In this document: positions 1 to 5,639 of the stretch, piece after piece | Numbering within the stretch: position 1 is the stretch's first letter | Layout: every line of letters begins with the position of its first letter | NCBI GenBank assembly: GCA_021827245.1 | Contig: JAKAWN010000405.1 | Span: 1 to 6,112, forward strand | Reading direction: 5' to 3' | DNA length: 6,112 nt | Origin: Acidobacteriota bacterium | GTDB taxonomy: Bacteria; Acidobacteriota; Terriglobia; UBA7540 | Translations under genes and position numbers: made by a program | The notes under the pieces: generated by a model | What the model saw: the letters and a program-made list of their open reading frames with translations, nothing else | Databases searched by the model: none | What the model was told of the DNA's origin: nothing

Positions 1-250
1 ACGACCTTTCGATCCTCTTCGCTTGCCAGAAGTGCTCCCGGCAGAAACCTCCGCCATCCAAAAAGTCCTGCCGCGCGATGCTGGACATCATACCCTCGTA
101 TAGGAAGCTATGGATGTACCTGCGCGTGGCTCTCATCGAGGCGTGGCATACCAGACATTCTCCCGTGGAAAGGCCACGCTGTAAGGCGATTCTCGCAAGT
201 ACGGATGGTGGACGTTTACCGATTTGACGTGAAGATGATAGGACACCCAT
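1..250 (-). CDS. Cys/His-rich protein, DUF6062-like, partial (C-terminus off the left edge)
   Basis: This open frame runs from ATG at 250 to the window edge, giving 83 residues with no stop. It is visible on the minus strand only, just downstream of dynamin-like gene 1. It contains CLVC (residues 32-35), then a basic helical stretch with an SFLYEGM segment (48-54), then GGGFCREHFW (66-75). The spacing CxxC, about 34 residues, CxxH, with an LYE motif and a GGFCREH motif, resembles proteins annotated as DUF6062, a family of unknown function; that link is from memory and was not searched. The four Cys/His residues suggest a zinc-binding unit. A TTG at 259-257, six bases after GAGAG, is an alternative start because the ATG lacks a clear ribosome binding site. 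The gap of 106 bases to the GTPase stop allows co-transcription. No function is known. Confidence 0.72.
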   Translation of the reverse strand, partial: MGVLSSSRQIGKRPPSVLARIALQRGLSTGECLVCHASMRATRRYIHSFLYEGMMSSIARQDFLDGGGFCREHFWQAKRIERS

Positions 251-356
251 AGGAGTCAACTCATGCTCTCAAACGGTTTGTGATAGCCGAGCAAAGCCGG
301 TGAAGGTTCATCCCAACACCGATCACCTCTCAAAACCACCGGCTCTCGGTTCATCG
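251..356 (-). other. Intergenic spacer with a long-range inverted repeat
   Basis: The gap between the stop of dynamin-like gene 1 and the partial Cys/His gene holds a 7-bp inverted repeat: GCCGGTG at 296-302 matches CACCGGC at 337-343, with a 34-base loop. On the minus strand the 3' arm is followed only by TTTG, so it is a poor intrinsic terminator. Inside the loop region, GGTG and CACC arms enclose a stretch starting TTGG. Further downstream comes TTGACTCCTAT just before the start codon. Both are faintly reminiscent of the aptamers elsewhere in the window, but the loop and the GACTCC segment do not pair properly. Confidence 0.35.
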
Positions 357-2405
357 TCAGATTACCTCCTGAACTCGGGAGCCAGAAAGGATGGAAAGGT
401 CGTGCCGGATCGCCTCTACTTCTTCGGCGCCGGGTTCTTTAGTGGTGGAAAGGCGCTCGAGTTGCGCTCGATAGGCGTCGGCATGCGAATCAAAGCGACG
501 TTGAAGTTCAGCCATAGTCCTTCGGGTCCACAATTCCAACATTCTTCCATACCTTTGGAACGCCTCATCGACGGCTGAGCCGATTTGCTCTCTTAAGTTC
601 CCTTTGACGCGACGCTCCGTGAGTCCCCGGCCCAACACGGCGAGAAAGTCCTTCTGAAGCCCGACGTCAAGAGGGCCAGCGTCAAATCGCGGCATCTCCT
701 TGACTACGCTTGTAAGTTCTTCTGCACCCGGCGGATCCTTCGCTTCCAGGGCGCTGGCGGCACCGGCCAGAGCACCCGACAGATCGCGTCCGAATTCCTG
801 GAGCTTCTCAAATATCTGATTCGCCCCCACCGTGGCCGTCTCGGCAAGACTACGACTGACTAGCTCGCCGACGTCTGTGTCTTTCATGGCCTTATCCAAC
901 CATTGGCTGGCAACCGCAGAGGCCGCCCGCGAGATAGCAACCTCTCCCCAATCATGGATCGTGTCTGAGGCTTTGAGACAAAACGAATTCACGTCCTCAA
1001 ATTTTCCTGCCACCCGCCGCAATTGAGTTTCGGCCGTCCGTAGCCGTTCCTTGTCTTGGTTCGCGCCTTTTTCAGAGAGTTCAAGCTGCACTTTCAGCGC
1101 TGCCTCGACAGACTCGTGCAGTGCGCCGATCTTCCGGCGAAGCGACTCTTGGGCCAACTCCTGATGTTTTGCGTAAAGAGGCTGGATTTCACGAAGGAAC
1201 CATTGATCCAGAAGCTTAGCATGACTGTCCTTTATGCTGACAGGCTGAATTGAAACCTTGAGGCCGAGCTGCGATTCCACCTGTCCGGAGATGTATTTCA
1301 AAGATCGGTCACGGTCTTCGGGCACGAGGAGGTCCGCCTTACTCAATATCACCAAGGCCGGGATGGCCGCTTCGTATAATCGCTGCACCGTGGAAAGGTC
1401 TTCATCGGTAAGGGTAGAACCTGCATCAACGAGCACAACCCCAAGATCGCACTGCGGCAGGTAGGCCAGCGTTTCCGCGGCTCCAGCCGTCGCCAGTGAA
1501 CCGAGTCCGGGTGTATCGACAAAGACAATGCCGTCACGCAGCCGCTCGGACGCTAACTCCACCGTGATTCGCGTGACGCGCTTTGAGTTCCCGGGATTAT
1601 CCTGCTCGCTCACAAATTCGTGCAGGCGCGAGACTTCCGCCTCTTCGACCTTCCTATCCAGATAAGAAATCTTCACTCGCGGTGTGTTGCCGTACACAAT
1701 GCGTGTTGGGACTGCGGTGATGGGATTAACACCCACAGGAAGCACGTCAGCACCCAGGATGTGGTTCAGGAGAGAAGACTTTCCTGAGCTGACGCGCCCG
1801 AACACTGCGATTTGGAAACTGTTGGACTCGAGCTTGTCCAAAATGATCGAAAGAGCGGACCGGAATTCGATCAAACCATGAGTGTTGATGACCTGTTCGA
1901 GTGTCCTCAATAGTTCGATTTCATTACCCGTCTGCGCCAAGCGCTGGAGGCGGCCTTCGAGGTCCTGGCCAAGTCCCTGCGTTAGGTAGGCACTGAGCTT
2001 TCGGACCAGGCTCGACATTTCATTCACAACCCCATTCAGTTCAGGGACGGTCGCAGGGGGCACTTCGCCGTAGCCGCGCAGGGCTTCGGGCCGGCAATCC
2101 GCGAAGGTGATATCCGCGAATTCCAGACTGACACGAATCGAGTGCGTCGCACCGAACTGAGGTCCGGGAGGCGTAATGTCCAGGCTCTTCAGCGCCTGGA
2201 CCATCTGGGCGCGAATCCTGGCAATGAAGTCCTGGACGACCTTCACCTGCGCTGGAGTGAGATCGTTTCGATACTTTGGGAACGGAGACTTGGAGTTCGA
2301 TGCGAAGAGTATGGATTCGACCTCGGACAAAAGCTGATCAACGTATTTGAAACCCGTTAAAACGCGGGACGCCTGGTACGGATTGAGAGAATCGTGGGAA
2401 GACAT
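357..2405 (-). CDS. Bacterial dynamin-like GTPase 1
   Basis: This 682-residue protein has an N-terminal helical region of about 195 residues and then a dynamin-type GTPase domain. The P-loop is GRVSSGKSS (203-211). The switch region is LPVGVNPITAVPT (222-234), a signature shared by many bacterial dynamin-like proteins. G3 is DTPG (297-300) and G4 is SKAD (355-358), where serine replaces the usual N/T. The remainder, to residue 682, is largely helical and charged, as expected for a stalk, with a short Ala/Gly/Leu stretch (sequence GALAGAASAL) that could be a weak membrane-contact segment. The family binds and hydrolyses GTP and remodels or tethers membranes. The ATG at 2405 follows GAAGGG closely. 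The gene is transcribed from a promoter and leader RNA at 2511-2599, and a Cys/His gene follows it. It is paired divergently with GTPase 2, so a heterotypic complex is plausible by analogy with other tandem bacterial dynamins. Confidence 0.93.
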   Translation of the reverse strand: MSSHDSLNPYQASRVLTGFKYVDQLLSEVESILFASNSKSPFPKYRNDLTPAQVKVVQDFIARIRAQMVQALKSLDITPPGPQFGATHSIRVSLEFADITFADCRPEALRGYGEVPPATVPELNGVVNEMSSLVRKLSAYLTQGLGQDLEGRLQRLAQTGNEIELLRTLEQVINTHGLIEFRSALSIILDKLESNSFQIAVFGRVSSGKSSLLNHILGADVLPVGVNPITAVPTRIVYGNTPRVKISYLDRKVEEAEVSRLHEFVSEQDNPGNSKRVTRITVELASERLRDGIVFVDTPGLGSLATAGAAETLAYLPQCDLGVVLVDAGSTLTDEDLSTVQRLYEAAIPALVILSKADLLVPEDRDRSLKYISGQVESQLGLKVSIQPVSIKDSHAKLLDQWFLREIQPLYAKHQELAQESLRRKIGALHESVEAALKVQLELSEKGANQDKERLRTAETQLRRVAGKFEDVNSFCLKASDTIHDWGEVAISRAASAVASQWLDKAMKDTDVGELVSRSLAETATVGANQIFEKLQEFGRDLSGALAGAASALEAKDPPGAEELTSVVKEMPRFDAGPLDVGLQKDFLAVLGRGLTERRVKGNLREQIGSAVDEAFQRYGRMLELWTRRTMAELQRRFDSHADAYRAQLERLSTTKEPGAEEVEAIRHDLSILSGSRVQEVI

Positions 2406-2510
2406 GTCCCTTCACTTCCCGGCGTAACGAGCCACGTCTGGTGACTTAGAAGGAAACCTCTGGCGAAAATAAGGCGGGAAAACGTTGGCCTCACCCTTCA
2501 CCAGGGAACC
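2406..2510 (-). promoter_or_regulatory. Leader of dynamin-like gene 1 with candidate expression platform
   Basis: The leader between the aptamer (2511-2562) and the start codon contains, on the minus strand, TTCCCTGGTG (2508-2499). This can pair over 10 bases, with two G-U pairs, with CACTGGGGAA (2535-2526), which includes the 3' arm of the aptamer's internal hairpin and A38. The two structures are mutually exclusive, as expected for a riboswitch expression platform. A local hairpin, CAGGG/CCCTG, can form instead. No U-run follows the alternative helix directly; a TTTT at about 2477-2486 lies further on. Control could therefore act on translation, Rho or another step. The platform is inferred by pairing by eye and was not folded by software. 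Confidence 0.5.
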
Positions 2511-2562
2511 CCTGTAGGAGTTATCTTCCCCAGTGGGGCAGTTAAGGGCGAACTCCAACGCC
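2511..2562 (-). promoter_or_regulatory. Variant fluoride-type riboswitch aptamer (copy A) upstream of dynamin-like gene 1
   Basis: Read on the minus strand, stem P1 is GGCG (2562-2559) with CGCC (2550-2547), closing the loop TTGGAGTT. AAC follows in the joiner, then a CCCC-ACT-GGGG hairpin (2538-2528), then AAGATAACTCCTAC. Loop bases GGAGTT (2556-2551) pair perfectly with AACTCC (2522-2517), the pseudoknot of the crcB/fluoride riboswitch. The linchpin A40 (2524) and U48 (2516) are kept. Compared with the known fold (Thermotoga petrophila numbering), position 6 is U instead of A and position 38 is A instead of U, a paired swap. Transcription should start immediately before P1. The family assignment is strong; ligand identity in this variant is uncertain. 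Confidence 0.8.
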
Positions 2563-2569
2563 TACGCTG

Positions 2570-2599
2570 ATTATCTGCCTCGCTCGTCCTTACAGTCAA
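2570..2599 (-). promoter_or_regulatory. Sigma70-type promoter for riboswitch A and dynamin-like gene 1
   Basis: On the minus strand, TTGACT (2599-2594) and GATAAT (2575-2570) are separated by 18 bases. The predicted start lies about seven bases on, near 2563, exactly at the first base of the aptamer stem. The promoter of copy C has the same two hexamers with a 17-base spacer. Confidence 0.72.
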
Positions 2600-2600
2600 G

Positions 2601-2614
2601 CACCGGAGACGGTG
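2601..2614. repeat. Short inverted repeat next to the divergent promoter
   Basis: CACCG and CGGTG flank a GAGA tetraloop, directly upstream of the minus-strand -35 box. It could be a hairpin or a protein-binding site. Nothing else identifies it. Confidence 0.3.
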
Positions 2615-2752
2615 TCGTAGGGGCATGTTTACACCGAAACCGAAACCCCTCTCTAAAACTCGGGAATCCGCAAAACTGCACAGATAAAGAAGAGCGGAGC
2701 CGCCCCTATGATGACTTTCTTGAATTTCAATCCGGGACTCTCTCGAGTGAGG
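2615..2752. other. Central divergent intergenic region with no gene seen
   Basis: This stretch lies between the minus-strand promoter (2570-2599) and the plus-strand -10 box (2753-2758). Short open frames cross it on both strands, but none has a convincing ribosome binding site or recognisable protein sequence. It contains a small ACCGAA tandem repeat near 2632-2643 and AT-rich patches. It probably provides only spacing and upstream promoter sequence. Confidence 0.4.
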
Positions 2753-2758
2753 TATAAT
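2753..2758 (+). promoter_or_regulatory. -10 box for riboswitch B and the Cys/His gene
   Basis: A perfect TATAAT lies here, and a start about seven bases on falls at about 2765, immediately before the aptamer stem at 2768. No good -35 box lies 16-18 bases upstream (the region reads ATCCGG or similar). The promoter may need an activator or rely on the strong -10 box. The placement mirrors the other two promoter-aptamer units. Confidence 0.6.
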
Positions 2759-2767
2759 TTCCCCCGT

Positions 2768-2823
2768 GGCGATGGAGTTCGCCTATCCAACCGTCTCGAT
2801 TTTCGAGACTGATAACTCCTACC
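2768..2823 (+). promoter_or_regulatory. Fluoride riboswitch aptamer (crcB motif, copy B), canonical core
   Basis: Stem P1 is GGCG (2768-2771) with CGCC (2780-2783), closing the loop ATGGAGTT. AACC follows, then a seven-bp hairpin GTCTCGA/TCGAGAC (2793-2799 with 2803-2809), then TGATAACTCCTACC. Loop GGAGTT (2774-2779) pairs fully with AACTCC (2814-2819), the fluoride riboswitch pseudoknot. The conserved A6 (2772), U38 (2810), A40 (2812), U41 (2813) and U48 (2820) are all present. In this class fluoride is held by magnesium ions bound to RNA phosphates, and binding usually turns on genes for fluoride export or resistance. Here the downstream gene is a Cys/His-rich protein, with no known fluoride transporter. 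Confidence 0.87.
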
Positions 2824-2955
2824 TGGAACCCTCTTGGCGGAGAGCACCGATAAGGTATTCGCCAATCCTGAAACTGAGAGGATTAGTAAAGCTCGGCGAG
2901 GCAGTTTGTATGCGTTCATTTGATTGATTGCGCCCCCAGAACCGTGAGGAACGCC
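2824..2955 (+). promoter_or_regulatory. Leader between riboswitch B and the Cys/His gene
   Basis: This 132-base leader begins with a CTCT/AGAG hairpin at about 2831-2844, closing a TGGCGG loop. The GGCG in this loop (2836-2839) could compete for the CGCC arm of P1, a possible but weak expression platform. No GC hairpin followed by a U-run is seen, so an intrinsic terminator is unlikely. GTGAGGA at 2944-2950 is the ribosome binding site for the ATG at 2956. Confidence 0.35.
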
Positions 2956-3525
2956 ATGCCACACGGCAAGAAAACTCACTTCGATTCTCTTTCAGATAAA
3001 TTTGGAAGAGACGGGTGCTCAGTATGTGCCTTCCTGAGGGAATTCCAATCCCGGTGTCTCAGAAGTCTTGACAGCGAAGAAGTGCGAACTCTATGTGGGT
3101 TTCACGCTTGGCAGGTCGCGAGCATCGTCAACGCAATCACGGCAGCGAAGATTTTCTTGCGTCTGATTGACAAGTCCATCTCCACTGAATATTCGGATCA
3201 GAAATGCGACCTGTGTGCCCGAATCAGGAAACAGGAAGACTCAAAGGTTCGCGAGTTTTGCAATGCATTGAATGAGCACGATTTCCAGGCCGCATCGAGC
3301 AAGTGTAGGTGCCTTTGCTTGCGGCACACAACCAGCGTCTCTGCCCGCGTTCCGGCCGGGTTGCGTAGCGGCGTGCATTCAGTCTTACAGATTCACGTGA
3401 CCGACTTAAAACGAAGGCTTTTCCACCTGTTAAGCGATTCAAACGCCGGTCAAACTCAACACGCAGGCATCTTGGGGCGAGCGGCTGAATTCCTGGTGGC
3501 TCAGCGAGGTTTGAAAAACGACTAG
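2956..3525 (+). CDS. Cys/His-rich protein with two CxxC/CxxH units, DUF6062-like
   Basis: This is a 189-residue soluble protein with no signal peptide or membrane segment. It shows two similar units: C21xxC24 with C47xxH50 (GFHAW follows C47), and C84xxC87 with C121xxH124. Each could bind one zinc ion. Extra cysteines lie at 34, 102, 117 and 119. The GFHAWQ and CLRH segments recall the FCREHFWQ segment of the partial protein at the left edge, so the two genes look like diverged relatives. Both resemble DUF6062-type proteins, of unknown function. ATG 2956 is preferred because GAGGA sits five to six bases before it; a TTG at 2920 in the same frame has no ribosome binding site. It follows riboswitch B and precedes dynamin-like gene 2 by 326 bases, which has its own promoter. 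No catalytic role can be assigned. Confidence 0.82.
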   Translation: MPHGKKTHFDSLSDKFGRDGCSVCAFLREFQSRCLRSLDSEEVRTLCGFHAWQVASIVNAITAAKIFLRLIDKSISTEYSDQKCDLCARIRKQEDSKVREFCNALNEHDFQAASSKCRCLCLRHTTSVSARVPAGLRSGVHSVLQIHVTDLKRRLFHLLSDSNAGQTQHAGILGRAAEFLVAQRGLKND

Positions 3526-3616
3526 AGGTTTCACCAAGTTGACGAAATTAAGCATCTCAGGAGACTTCCTGATACCCTGTACCTTAAGCTGCAGTAAGGG
3601 TTAACAATGAAGCCGA
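3526..3616 (+). other. Short intergenic stretch with weak hairpins
   Basis: After the Cys/His gene stop, ACCTTA (3581-3586) and TAAGGGT (3595-3601) can form a stem, and AGGA/TCCT a smaller one near 3560-3570. Neither is followed by a U-run, so termination here is not clearly encoded. Read-through into the next gene remains possible. Confidence 0.3.
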
Positions 3617-3645
3617 TTGACTAGATCGCACCAAAATCTGATAAT
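3617..3645 (+). promoter_or_regulatory. Sigma70-type promoter for riboswitch C and dynamin-like gene 2
   Basis: TTGACT (3617-3622) and GATAAT (3640-3645) are separated by 17 bases, the ideal spacing. The predicted start is near 3651-3652, the first base of the aptamer. The hexamers are identical to those of the copy A promoter. Confidence 0.75.
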
Positions 3646-3651
3646 AAAAAT

Positions 3652-3700
3652 GGCGTTGGAGTTCGCCGTTAACCGCCCTTGCCGGGGAAGATGACTCCTG
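3652..3700 (+). promoter_or_regulatory. Variant fluoride-type riboswitch aptamer (copy C) upstream of dynamin-like gene 2
   Basis: Stem P1 is GGCG (3652-3655) with CGCC (3664-3667), closing the loop TTGGAGTT. AACC follows, then a CCC/GGG-type hairpin (3676-3687), then AAGATGACTCCT. Loop GGAGTT (3658-3663) pairs with GACTCC (3693-3698) with one terminal G-U pair. A40 (3691), U41 (3692), G42 (3693) and U48 (3699) match the fluoride riboswitch. Position 6 is U (3656) and position 38 is A (3689), the same paired swap as in copy A. Copies A and C are closer to each other than to copy B, and both precede dynamin genes. Confidence 0.78.
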
Positions 3701-3851
3701 AACCGGGGTATTTCCCCAATGGGCGCCAAATGGCTGATCCAGCGACTCACCTCATTTGGAAATCCCCGAAAACACAGGAAGACATCTCCGGCTGCGAGTG
3801 ACCAAATCTTTGCAAAGCCGGAAGCCTTTTCCGATGCGTCGGAGGCTGCCT
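3701..3851 (+). promoter_or_regulatory. Leader of dynamin-like gene 2 with candidate expression platform
   Basis: TTCCCC (3712-3717) can pair perfectly with GGGGAA (3684-3689), which is the 3' arm of the aptamer hairpin plus A38. GGGCG (3721-3725) can then pair with CGCCC (3674-3678), the other arm. This 11-bp alternative helix with a small internal loop would break the aptamer. A local GGGG/CCCC hairpin (3705-3708 with 3714-3717) competes with it. No U-run follows, so the output is not plain intrinsic termination. The leader from the predicted start to the ATG is about 200 bases. GGAGG at 3841-3845 is the ribosome binding site. Confidence 0.5.
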
Positions 3852-5639
3852 ATGCCGACAGGCAAGGACGACAAGCTGATGCCCACGAGTTTCACGTACG
3901 GACCCTCATCCGAAACCAGTACCGCAGCAACCGCTGAGGTGGACGGCGCTGGCAGGCTTCTGCGTCTGGCAAAACTGGGAGAAGAACTGGGCACAAATCG
4001 GGTTGCCGATGAGGCCCGCGAACTGGCGGCCCGAATATCCGAGGGGCGCTTCTATGTTGCCTGTGTGGGACAGTTCAAGCGAGGCAAGTCTACCCTTATC
4101 AACGCGCTGATCGGCCATCCCGTCTTGCCCGTTGGCTTCATTCCGGTCACGGCCGTTCCCACGGTCATTCGATACGGCGAACAGCTCAAGGCACGGCTCA
4201 AGGACCGTGACTATTCGTGGCACGAGATTCCCGTCTCGGACCTGAAGCAACACGTATCAGAAGAACATAATCCGGAGAACGCCAAGGGCGTGACCGGCGT
4301 CGAAGTGTTTGTGCCAAGCCGTCTGCTGTCGACTGGGATGTGCCTTGTAGATACTCCGGGTTTGGGATCGGTCTTCACGGGTAACACCTCCGCAACTCAG
4401 GATTTTATCCCTCACATCGACGCCGCCTTGGTAGTAGTAGGCGCTGATCCTCCGCTGGCAGGCGACGAACTTACGACTGTCGAAGCTGTAGCTCGGAATG
4501 TTCAGGACCTGATCGTCATTCTCAACAAGGCCGACCGAACCTCGGATGAAGAAAGGGCGGCTGCCTCCGATTTCACGCGTAAGCTGCTTGAAAAGCGTTT
4601 GAAGAGACCGATTGGATCCGTCTTCGAGGTGAGCGCCGCCGAGCGACTTGAGAATCGTGGACCGGAACGCGATTGGCCGAAATTTGTCGCGGCGCTTGAG
4701 CGCCTGGTGCAGGATTCTGGCCGCCAAATTGTGCTGGCGGCCTGTGATCGAGGACTCGTGCGACTGAGTAAAGAACTGCTGGCAATTGTCACCGAGGAGC
4801 GCGAGGCGCTCGAACGTCCGATTGAAGAGTCTGAAAGGCGAATTGCGGCGATGAAAGCTACCATCGCCGAGGCAGATCGCTCGATGCGCGAACTCGGCTT
4901 TCTCCTGATAGCTGAGCAGCAGCGTTTGTCCGACACGTTTGTGGACCGGCGCAAAGCCTTTCTCCGCTCTGTGCTACCTCGGGCAATCCAGGAATTCCAG
5001 GAAGTGTTGCCTTCGGTGCCGCGGAGGATCGGACCTTCCTACCGGCGTGCGTTGATGAGCCATGCGCAAGAGATTGCGAAGAAGCACGTTCTGCCATGGC
5101 TTTCCACCGAGCAACAAGAGGCGGAGCAGGAGTACAGAGTGGTTACCCGCCGGTTCGTTCAAATGGGCAACGATTTTCTGCAAAAGCTTGCCGAGGCAGG
5201 CATTCCTGAGTTGAGTCGCATGCCCCACGCCCTGGATGCTGAAACCGGATTTCGGATTGGTTCCCGGTTCTCATTTCTCGACCTTATCGAGGTAGCGCAA
5301 CCGGCTTCACCACTTCGATGGCTGGCCGACCTGGTCCTTGGATTCATAGGGGCGCGAACAATGATCCAACGGGACGCTGCGGAATTTCTGGAGCACCTGC
5401 TCGAAACCAATAGCGCTCGGCTCCTGAGCGATGTACTTAACCGCGTCCAGGAGAGCCGCGGACGGTTGGAAGTGGAGGTCAAGAAACTGCTCCACGAAGT
5501 GAGCCGGATTGCCGAGCAGGCCCTGGCTCATGCCCGGTCGGCCCGGGATGCCGGCGTTTCCGGTGTCGAGTCAGCGCTTGCTCGCTTAAGCCGCCTCGAT
5601 CAAGAGATCCGCGAGATCCGCCCCGCGCAAATAACCTGA
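3852..5639 (+). CDS. Bacterial dynamin-like GTPase 2
   Basis: This 595-residue protein has a short N-terminal extension and then a dynamin-type GTPase domain. The P-loop is GQFKRGKST (73-81), the switch region LPVGFIPVTAVPT (92-104), G3 DTPG (167-170) and G4 NKAD (225-228). About 300 residues of charged helical stalk follow, with coiled-coil character. A hydrophobic segment at about residues 483-503 (PLRWLADLVLGFIGA) is a candidate membrane-insertion paddle, as in bacterial dynamin-like proteins. ATG 3852 is chosen because GGAGG lies six bases upstream; in-frame TTG at 3756 and ATG at 3834 lack this and would extend the protein into the leader. The GTPase domain shares block order and many residues with GTPase 1, but the N-terminal region is about 130 residues shorter, so they are diverged paralogues or partners. 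It has its own promoter and variant riboswitch. Likely role: GTP-dependent membrane remodelling or repair. Confidence 0.94.
   Translation: MPTGKDDKLMPTSFTYGPSSETSTAATAEVDGAGRLLRLAKLGEELGTNRVADEARELAARISEGRFYVACVGQFKRGKSTLINALIGHPVLPVGFIPVTAVPTVIRYGEQLKARLKDRDYSWHEIPVSDLKQHVSEEHNPENAKGVTGVEVFVPSRLLSTGMCLVDTPGLGSVFTGNTSATQDFIPHIDAALVVVGADPPLAGDELTTVEAVARNVQDLIVILNKADRTSDEERAAASDFTRKLLEKRLKRPIGSVFEVSAAERLENRGPERDWPKFVAALERLVQDSGRQIVLAACDRGLVRLSKELLAIVTEEREALERPIEESERRIAAMKATIAEADRSMRELGFLLIAEQQRLSDTFVDRRKAFLRSVLPRAIQEFQEVLPSVPRRIGPSYRRALMSHAQEIAKKHVLPWLSTEQQEAEQEYRVVTRRFVQMGNDFLQKLAEAGIPELSRMPHALDAETGFRIGSRFSFLDLIEVAQPASPLRWLADLVLGFIGARTMIQRDAAEFLEHLLETNSARLLSDVLNRVQESRGRLEVEVKKLLHEVSRIAEQALAHARSARDAGVSGVESALARLSRLDQEIREIRPAQIT

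What the first reader, a model, noticed from the sequence alone, without database searches (positions are those of the whole stretch)
2511..3700. Variant fluoride-type riboswitches with a swapped A6-U38 tertiary pair
Copies A (2511-2562, minus) and C (3652-3700, plus) keep the fluoride riboswitch pseudoknot, the A40-U48 linchpin and the P1 stem. Both carry U at position 6 (2558; 3656) and A at position 38 (2526; 3689), where the known aptamer has A6 and U38, which pair in the crystal structure. Copy B between them is canonical (A2772, U2810). Two independent copies with the same compensatory change argue for selection and a distinct subtype. It may keep fluoride binding, since the ion is held by phosphates and magnesium, or it may have changed affinity or ligand.
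Basis: partly seen in the sequence, partly recalled or inferred. Interest (0 to 1): 0.9.

Follow-up and report, generated by a model that had tools for sequence, protein, structure and literature searches.

The report
Fluoride riboswitches with a swapped pair
Two of the three fluoride-sensing RNA switches in this stretch of bacterial DNA have a normally conserved A-U contact flipped to U-A, the same flip (and a third G-C version) recurs in many related bacteria, and the flipped switches probably still sense fluoride but often sit before genes for membrane-remodelling proteins that we did not find linked to fluoride before.

Summary
The window has three Rfam fluoride riboswitches (51, 34.8, 34.1 bits; cut-off 34); copies A and C carry U6/A38, copy B A6/U38. 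A pattern requiring U6/A38 found 51 genome loci: 49 with Acidobacteriota titles, one probably mislabelled, one chance. Over 282 distinct aptamers, 6/38 is A-U 129, U-A 75, G-C 68, G-U 3, other 7. In an order-level sample it is the most strongly co-varying of the well-filled column pairs. So the reversed Watson-Crick tertiary pair covaries, with a third form, G6-C38, usually with A39. At Rfam's cut-off 20 of 22 A-U but only 6 of 13 U-A and 9 of 40 G-C copies appear. Each form precedes crcB somewhere; U-A and G-C also precede pyrophosphatase and DUF190, so the ligand is most likely still fluoride. 45 of 75 U-A aptamers precede dynamin-like GTPases, as do four A-U aptamers in Bacillota, one before a fragment. 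Changed affinity is untested. Not found in print. A real, lineage-specific variant of a known riboswitch.

The parts
2508..2571 (-). copy A: fluoride aptamer, U6-A38 form (A37)
   Evidence: RF01734 34.8 bits, E 6.5e-07; own model R1 64.9 bits, R1 was built with this copy in it; pattern match
2558..2558 (-). copy A position 6 = U
   Evidence: sequence
2526..2526 (-). copy A position 38 = A
   Evidence: sequence
2759..2828 (+). copy B: fluoride aptamer, canonical A6-U38 form
   Evidence: RF01734 51 bits, E 3.3e-12
3643..3707 (+). copy C: fluoride aptamer, U6-A38 form (A37)
   Evidence: RF01734 34.1 bits, E 1.1e-06; R1 65.5 bits, same caution; pattern match
3656..3656 (+). copy C position 6 = U
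   Evidence: sequence
3689..3689 (+). copy C position 38 = A
   Evidence: sequence
2570..2599 (-). promoter-like TTGACT-18-GATAAT ending 7 nt before copy A's P1 (consensus match only; 2 found in the region, shuffles 0.9)
   Evidence: an ATAAT box near P1 is enriched in the U-A class
3617..3645 (+). promoter-like TTGACT-17-GATAAT ending 6 nt before copy C's P1 (same caution)
357..2405 (-). dynamin-like GTPase, 682 aa, downstream of copy A
   Evidence: Pfam Dynamin_N 4.1e-27; nearest solved chains IniA, a GTP-binding protein (5owv) and a bacterial dynamin-like protein
2..259 (-). partial DUF6062-like ORF after the copy A dynamin gene, cut by the window edge
   Evidence: PF19538 E 7.8e-05, 22.6 bits, under its cut-off 27
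2920..3525 (+). 201-aa Cys-rich ORF downstream of copy B, weakly DUF6062-like
   Evidence: PF19538 E 0.011, under cut-off; similar ORFs in L124, L152, L164 score 9.6e-06 to 8.2e-04, also under cut-off
3756..5639 (+). dynamin-like GTPase, 627 aa, downstream of copy C
   Evidence: Pfam Dynamin_N 1e-27; IniA 4.2e-18, bacterial dynamin-like protein 1.6e-11

Best explanation
Copies A and C are working members of the fluoride riboswitch family in which the long-range reversed Watson-Crick pair 6-38 is built as U-A instead of A-U. The fold needs a pair at this place, not its letters: A-U, U-A and G-C are all used in this branch of Acidobacteriota. Fluoride and Mg2+ are held by backbone phosphates, so the swap should leave the binding site in place (established structure, then inference). 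Fluoride stabilises the pseudoknot, keeps the CUCCU strand (44-48) from pairing downstream, and turns the gene on. In this window the genes behind the swapped copies are two dynamin-like GTPases, plausibly there to keep membranes intact under fluoride/HF stress (inferred). Shown: the aptamers, the covariation, the gene association, and excess predicted downstream pairing of 44-48. Inferred: fluoride binding, ON direction, and dynamin function.
For: Rfam matches at cut-off. 51 loci with U6/A38; 50 of them have a U-A aptamer hit with R1, the 51st was set aside. Pair 6-38 on 45 aligned aptamers: UA 21, AU 11, GC 11, GU 1, other 1; on 81 order-level aptamers: GC 40, AU 22, UA 14, other 5; 282 distinct in all, 275 standard pairs. 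Highest mutual information among columns filled in at least 76 of 81 rows: 1.19 bits, next 0.79, best P1 pair 0.74. In 396 Acidobacteriota genomes with positions 6 and 38 left open, all 66 listed matches carry complementary letters; read by eye 62 A-U, 2 U-A, 2 G-C, one of the last with a poor pseudoknot; reversed-pattern control 0. A40, U41 and U48 are nearly invariant in each form. Genes: CrcB behind A-U 31, G-C 10, G-U 1, U-A 1; DUF190 G-C 6, U-A 4, A-U 3; pyrophosphatase U-A 1, G-C 1; mutS-like U-A 4, A-U 1; NADHdh-type A-U 9, U-A 1 (Pfam on members of both or all forms for CrcB, DUF190 and pyrophosphatase). 44-48 pairs downstream in 52% of U-A leaders against 27% shuffled (A-U 88/40, G-C 85/33). 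[quoted passage not shown]
Against: No binding or expression data for any U-A or G-C aptamer. Phylogeny-aware pair tests have only 0-3 independent contrasts per gene tree, too few for significance; the mean number of opposite contrasts was 0.0, though single random pairings in the dynamin G/C test had one. Seven of 282 aptamers are not standard pairs at 6-38 (A-C 5, C-C 1, G-A 1). Only one U-A copy precedes crcB. The expression platform signal is weakest in the U-A class (52/27; 48/34), and no terminator-like site was found after A or C. Position 38 also pairs downstream somewhat more than shuffled in U-A (29/19%) and G-C (58/34%) leaders, not in A-U (41/40%), so part of the choice of letter at 38 could come from the ligand-free fold.
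Confidence: 0.82

Rival explanations
1. The U-A (and G-C) forms are tuned subclasses: same ligand, but shifted fluoride affinity or folding rate, so that one genome with several fluoride riboswitches answers in graded steps, with the dynamin arm set apart from export and enzyme-rescue genes.
For: Genomes with U-A aptamers hold up to 11 fluoride aptamers. Forms are unevenly spread over genes: dynamin 45 of 73 U-A, Na+/H+ exchanger 18 of 21 G-C, CLC 13 of 14 A-U, enolase 8 of 11 A-U. U-A aptamers have their own promoter-like spacing: ATAAT within 18 nt before P1 in 39 of 75 against 8 of 69 A-U and 7 of 68 G-C of the same genomes.
Against: Uneven spread can be common descent: the U-A dynamin leaders are mostly one clade, and many genomes were chosen because they hold a U-A aptamer (outside them 7 of 13 U-A precede dynamins). 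No affinity data.
Confidence: 0.3
2. Neutral exchange: the pair drifted through compensatory changes in an ancestor of this group and spread by descent and leader copying, with no functional difference.
For: Mostly one branch: 31 of 31 Bacillota aptamers read are A-U, 62 of 66 pattern matches across 396 Acidobacteriota genomes are A-U, and the U-A pattern found no sure hit outside Acidobacteriota in genome contigs. Few class changes on gene trees.
Against: Two kinds of double change (U-A and G-C), lasting mixture within genomes, and linked features (A39 in 61 of 68 G-C; promoter-like box in U-A) are more than one drift event.
Confidence: 0.4
3. The U-A form senses a different ligand.
For: Riboswitch variants with altered ligands are known in other classes (recalled). 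Most genes behind U-A aptamers (dynamins) are not classic fluoride genes.
Against: U-A aptamers also precede crcB, pyrophosphatase, DUF190, mutS-like and NADHdh-type genes, and dynamins also follow A-U aptamers, in Bacillota too. Positions 40, 41 and 48 are unchanged.
Confidence: 0.05
4. U6 and A38 are dictated by the ligand-free fold: positions 5-11 and 33-38 pair with downstream anti-aptamer strands, so the letters follow the expression platform rather than the tertiary pair.
For: Minimum-energy folds of the A and C leaders pair these segments downstream. The 33-38 segment of A37 U-A aptamers has a perfect downstream complement in 5 of 40, expected 0.5. Position 38 pairs downstream in 29% of U-A leaders against 19% shuffled, in 58% against 34% of G-C ones.
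Against: Downstream pairing of position 6 is near shuffled in U-A (55% against 48%) and of 5-11 only slightly above (44% against 34%); C37 forms show 0 of 26 in the complement test. It does not explain why 6 and 38 change together into complementary letters.
Confidence: 0.05
5. A and C are decayed or chance look-alikes.
For: Scores sit just above the Rfam cut-off.
Against: Intact core, many relatives, strong covariation, and consistent place before genes.
Confidence: 0.01

Closest known systems
Fluoride riboswitch (crcB motif, Rfam RF01734)
   Same: P1, P3, six-pair pseudoknot, A40-U48, and (in relatives of the same form) place before crcB, DUF190, pyrophosphatase, mutS-like and NADHdh-type genes; scores at the Rfam cut-off
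   Different: Position 6-38 is U-A (or G-C, usually with A39) instead of the consensus A-U; often A37, so P3 loses its closing pair; often before dynamin-like GTPases; in 39 of 75 an ATAAT box close before P1
Thermotoga petrophila / Bacillus cereus fluoride aptamers (A6-U38, numbering recalled; called A10-U38 in PMC10687018)
   Same: A long-range pair joins the same two places; fluoride promotes it in B. cereus (passages)
   Different: Letters reversed or replaced. The Levitt pair of tRNA (G15-C48, in some A15-U48; recalled) shows that reversed Watson-Crick pairs can exchange in nature
Bacterial dynamin-like proteins (IniA; 5owv and 2j68 chains)
   Same: Dynamin_N GTPase domain; nearest solved chains
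   Different: Here behind fluoride riboswitches, a link not found in the papers searched

Membership tests
Fluoride riboswitch (RF01734) | Covariance model score at or above the gathering cut-off 34 | tested here: met
   A 34.8, B 51, C 34.1 bits; many relatives of the U-A and G-C forms fall below it
Fluoride riboswitch (RF01734) | P1 stem and pseudoknot 8-13/42-47 | tested here: met
   U-A class: 6 of 6 pseudoknot pairs (G-U allowed) in 60 of 62 distinct aptamers, 5 of 6 in 2; P1 cells 99.4% and 98.1% paired
Fluoride riboswitch (RF01734) | A40-U48 linchpin and U41 | tested here: met
   U-A class A40 75 of 75, U41 75 of 75, U48 74 of 75
Fluoride riboswitch (RF01734) | Consensus letters A6 and U38 | tested here: not met
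   A and C carry U6 and A38; B is canonical. Rfam's own cut-off does not require them
Fluoride riboswitch (RF01734) | A 6-38 pair of some Watson-Crick-compatible kind | tested here: met
   275 of 282 distinct aptamers; the geometry itself was not tested
Fluoride riboswitch (RF01734) | Place upstream of fluoride-response genes | tested here: met
   The U-A class precedes CrcB, DUF190, pyrophosphatase and mutS-like genes elsewhere; in the window the genes are dynamins and a weak DUF6062-like ORF
Fluoride riboswitch (RF01734) | Binds fluoride with Mg2+ | not testable with these tools
   needs in-line probing or a reporter
Bacterial dynamin-like proteins | Dynamin_N GTPase domain over the Pfam cut-off | tested here: met
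   95.7 and 97.7 bits, cut-off 27
Bacterial dynamin-like proteins | Membrane remodelling activity | not testable with these tools
   inferred from family only
DUF6062 | PF19538 over cut-off 27 | tested here: not met
   window ORFs 15.6 and 22.6 bits, the second cut by the window edge; the Bacillota ORF in L302 does pass, 63 bits

The most novel reading that the evidence does not exclude
The A6-U38, U6-A38 and G6-C38(A39) aptamers are three functional subclasses of the fluoride riboswitch with different set-points, used side by side in one genome to run a staged fluoride response. The U-A subclass, often transcribed from a promoter that starts at the aptamer itself, switches on a dynamin-like GTPase (and cyclopropane fatty acid synthase) membrane-protection arm of fluoride resistance not described before.
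Probability: 0.25. Interest if true: 0.8.

Novelty: new variant of a known kind. Interest (0 to 1): 0.6.

Why it matters
The 6-38 contact is known from structures and probing, but both letters stand as capitals in Rfam's consensus and all Bacillota aptamers read here keep A-U, so natural variation offered little test of it. Here nature supplies two kinds of double replacement. That makes single and double mutants directly interpretable and suggests that a phosphate-held ligand site tolerates exchange of a tertiary pair. In one order Rfam's cut-off misses 31 of 40 G-C and 7 of 13 U-A copies, so fluoride regulons there are likely under-counted. It points to dynamin-like GTPases, also in Bacillota, as fluoride-response genes, which makes a membrane-damage model of fluoride toxicity testable.

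Tried and rejected
Loose 16-base pattern in viral contigs: at least 120 stretches (capped), too unspecific, not used further; the specific U-A (A37) and A-U patterns found none in viral contigs. Plasmid search with copy C's leader: one short weak hit. Anti-aptamer fold as the reason for U6/A38: not general for position 6, partly open for 38. Terminator scan of 2350-3900: one terminator-like site, not after A or C. Different ligand: unlikely from gene context. Literature: A6-U38, 0 papers; fluoride riboswitch with dynamin, 0; crcB with dynamin, 5 listed, none on this subject by title; DUF6062, 0; one search listed 12 of 455, none holding 'bacterial dynamin'; listings only. The closest paper, NAR 2026 gkag542 (PMC13273304, abstract and passages only), names P1, pseudoknot and P3 as covarying regions of RF01734; 'U38' and 'dynamin' do not occur in its held text, its supplements were not seen. 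PMC11077080: one passage, nothing on 6-38. The 2012 fluoride riboswitch discovery and crystal papers were not seen; what is said of them is recalled, in part through PMC10687018 and PMC8752731 (passages).

Of the 66 matches only 30 came as loci; after removal of repeats 28 remained, all A-U, the removed ones including the U-A locus L251, already counted; all 66 were read by eye from the listing. Of the hits only the 30 best-scoring loci were read (31 aptamers). Of the hits, those in stretches already held or in the 60 fetched were read; at least five others (in G011, G015 twice, G421, G429) were not. The order sample of 80-81 aptamers comes almost wholly from genomes that the U-A pattern had not picked, which disfavours U-A in it. 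Phyla other than these two were sampled only by the U-A pattern scan. 13 of 283 aptamers had no downstream ORF by the rule used.
Full report
What is there. The window (6112 bases, 55.7% GC; no own genome held) carries three fluoride riboswitch aptamers that reach the Rfam RF01734 gathering score: copy A 2508-2571 minus (34.8 bits), copy B 2759-2828 plus (51 bits), copy C 3643-3707 plus (34.1 bits). A and C have U6 and A38, B has A6 and U38, exactly at the coordinates given. A and C also have A37 for C37, which loses the 24-37 closing pair of P3. A leads to a 682-aa dynamin-like GTPase (357-2405 minus), followed by an ORF cut by the window edge that looks weakly like DUF6062. B leads to a 201-aa Cys-rich ORF (2920-3525), also weakly DUF6062-like. 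C leads to a 627-aa dynamin-like GTPase (3756-5639). The closest solved proteins are IniA and other bacterial dynamin-like GTPases.

Relatives of the variant. A pattern that fixes U6 and A38 but leaves position 37 free matched 51 loci in genome contigs; the version with A37 fixed matched none in viral contigs. 49 of the 51 records have titles that belong to Acidobacteriota (Bryobacterales, Terriglobia and others). L144, titled Arcobacter, has 66% GC and a dynamin 72-73% identical to those of two Acidobacteriota loci, so it is probably mislabelled. L125 (Oscillospiraceae) lacks a matching pseudoknot (read from its sequence), and its genome has no RF01734 match at E 0.001, so it is taken as chance. 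All 50 others have a U-A hit with the model R1.

Covariation. R1 was built from 45 aptamers of mixed forms. On these 45, pair 6-38 is UA 21, AU 11, GC 11, GU 1, other 1. R1 over 71 loci gave 155 hits. In 200 genomes drawn from the order of L141's genome it hit 66. 60 stretches, nearly all from these genomes where not yet held, were fetched and gave 81 aligned aptamers: GC 40, AU 22, UA 14, other 5. In this sample columns 6 and 38 have the highest mutual information of all pairs of columns filled in at least 76 of 81 rows (1.19 bits; next 0.79; best P1 pair 0.74). Altogether 282 distinct aptamers: A-U 129, U-A 75, G-C 68, A-C 5, G-U 3, C-C 1, G-A 1. 31 of 31 distinct aptamers from the 30 best Bacillota loci are A-U. 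In 396 Acidobacteriota genomes searched with both letters open, the 66 matches read by eye as 62 A-U, 2 U-A, 1 G-C and 1 G-C-lettered match with a poor pseudoknot; there was no mismatched pair, and the reversed-pattern control gave 0. The G-C form is coupled to A39: 61 of 68, against 18 of 129 A-U and 7 of 75 U-A.

Limits of the covariation evidence. Sequences are related. On a quick tree of 63 dynamin proteins the U-A label needs 2 changes and starred branches force 2; all labels together need 7. The gene after copy A lies in a 28-row all-U-A set (support 96), the gene after copy C in a 4-row U-A set (100) inside an 11-row set with U-A 4, G-C 4, A-U 3 (98). So the two window copies sit before genes from separate U-A lineages, although leader copying could mimic this. 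Independent-contrast tests have 0-3 pairs per tree and cannot reach significance; the mean number of opposite contrasts was 0.0.

Rfam blind spot. In the order sample, Rfam at its cut-off recovers 20 of 22 A-U, 6 of 13 U-A, 9 of 40 G-C, 2 of 3 A-C, 1 of 1 C-C and 0 of 1 G-A aptamers, 38 of 80. The 80 were found by R1, which was built from this group, so the comparison says what Rfam misses, not which model is better.

Genes and ligand. First downstream ORFs (mechanical rule: longest ORF starting within 350 nt), grouped by similarity: dynamin-like 73 (U-A 45, G-C 12, A-U 12, other 4), CrcB 43 (A-U 31, G-C 10, U-A 1, G-U 1), Na+/H+ exchanger 21 (G-C 18, A-U 3), CLC channel 14 (A-U 13, A-C 1), DUF190 13 (G-C 6, U-A 4, A-U 3), enolase 11 (A-U 8, A-C 2, G-U 1), NADHdh-type subunit 10 (A-U 9, U-A 1), cyclopropane synthase 7 (U-A 4, A-U 3), AAA_16 ATPase 6 (G-C 6), mutS-like 5 (U-A 4, A-U 1), pyrophosphatase 2 (U-A 1, G-C 1). 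Groups were typed by Pfam on one or more members: CrcB behind U-A (L134) and G-C (L347); DUF190 behind all four U-A, one G-C and three A-U; pyrophosphatase behind U-A and G-C; dynamin behind U-A, G-C and A-U; mutS domain V behind three U-A; the rest on one to four members. Because each form precedes crcB somewhere and other genes of the kind first linked to crcB RNAs (mutS, K+ or Cl- transport, formate hydrogen lyase; PMC2864571, passages), the simplest reading is that all forms sense fluoride.

The dynamin link is not peculiar to the variant. Four of the 31 Bacillota aptamers, all A-U, precede dynamin-like ORFs over the Pfam cut-off: L281, L283 and L285 with the GTPase domain nearly complete, L309 with a 99-aa fragment only. 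These loci were the best-scoring for a model built from Acidobacteriota, so 4 of 31 is not a fair frequency. A DUF6062 protein over its cut-off (L302) and a cyclopropane synthase (L308) also follow Bacillota aptamers.

How it may work. In leaders folded without the pseudoknot, the 44-48 strand (CUCCU) is predicted to pair downstream more often than in shuffled controls in all classes: U-A 52% against 27% (73 leaders), A-U 88% against 40% (97), G-C 85% against 33% (66) (with a shorter segment, gave 48/34, 90/51, 74/41). In the fluoride-bound state this strand is in the pseudoknot and U48 pairs with A40, so fluoride should release the downstream strand and raise expression; this direction is inferred from studied fluoride riboswitches (PMC8752731, PMC10687018, passages). 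No terminator-like site was found after A or C, so control at translation or by other means is open. Predicted folds of the A and C leaders form long hairpins that take up most of the aptamer (z -1.61 and -2.46; 12 and 2 of 200 shuffles fold as well). Across the U-A class, downstream pairing of position 6 is not clearly enriched (55% against 48%), that of position 38 somewhat (29% against 19%; G-C 58 against 34, A-U 41 against 40), so the ligand-free fold may bear on 38 but does not explain the joint change. U-A aptamers more often have an ATAAT box within 18 nt before P1 (39 of 75, expected 2.3; in 32 of these 6-7 nt away; A-U 8 of 69, G-C 7 of 68 in the same genomes), which suggests that transcription starts at the aptamer. 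In the window, promoter-like sites end 7 and 6 nt before the P1 stems of A and C (2 found, 0.9 expected).

Novelty. The searches of the held library gave no report of exchanged letters at 6-38, of a G-C form, or of fluoride riboswitches before dynamins. A 2026 covariation study of this family names only P1, pseudoknot and P3 in the passages seen. Subscription papers and supplements were not seen. I class it as a new variant of a known kind.

Noticed in passing
window 357-2405 minus and 3756-5639 plus; Bacillota loci L281, L283, L285, L309 (fragment): Dynamin-like GTPases stand behind fluoride riboswitches in Acidobacteriota (U-A, G-C and A-U forms) and in Bacillota (A-U form), apparently a fluoride-response gene family not in the papers searched.
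   Followed up: partly
L210:7165-7225 plus, L220:12661-12723 minus, L221:6369-6434 plus and others: Third aptamer form G6-C38, usually with A39 (61 of 68), commonest form in the order sample (40 of 81) and mostly below the Rfam cut-off.
   Followed up: yes
window 2920-3525 plus and 2-259 minus; L124, L152, L164, L302: DUF6062-like Cys-rich ORFs follow fluoride riboswitches; in the Acidobacteriota loci they score under the Pfam cut-off, the Bacillota one (L302) passes it.
   Followed up: partly
G001, G004 and G428: Genomes with 11 fluoride aptamers each, several of them clustered within a few kb.
   Followed up: partly
alignments A2 and A5: Of 32 neighbouring aptamer pairs under 700 nt apart, 26 are divergent, 6 same-strand, 0 convergent.
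   Followed up: no
L137:235-304, L219:7478-7545: A6-C38 aptamers (5 of 282); these two stand before enolase, apparent exceptions to the pairing rule.
   Followed up: no
L210:12861-12943, L128:6837-6919, L121:1594-1679: Aptamers before NADHdh-type membrane subunit genes seem, by eye, to carry an extra hairpin between P1 and P3.
   Followed up: no
L147, L169, L126, L364 (U-A); L202, L276, L308 (A-U): Cyclopropane fatty acid synthase-like genes behind fluoride aptamers (U-A 4, A-U 3, one in Bacillota), another membrane-related target; four of the seven checked with Pfam.
   Followed up: partly
L283:1277-1350 minus and 1501-1564 plus: A Bacillota locus with a divergent aptamer pair, DUF190 on one side and a dynamin on the other, the same layout as in Acidobacteriota.
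   Followed up: no
L144 (DYJN01000033.1): Contig titled Arcobacter has 66% GC and an Acidobacteriota-like dynamin; probably a mislabelled bin.
   Followed up: partly
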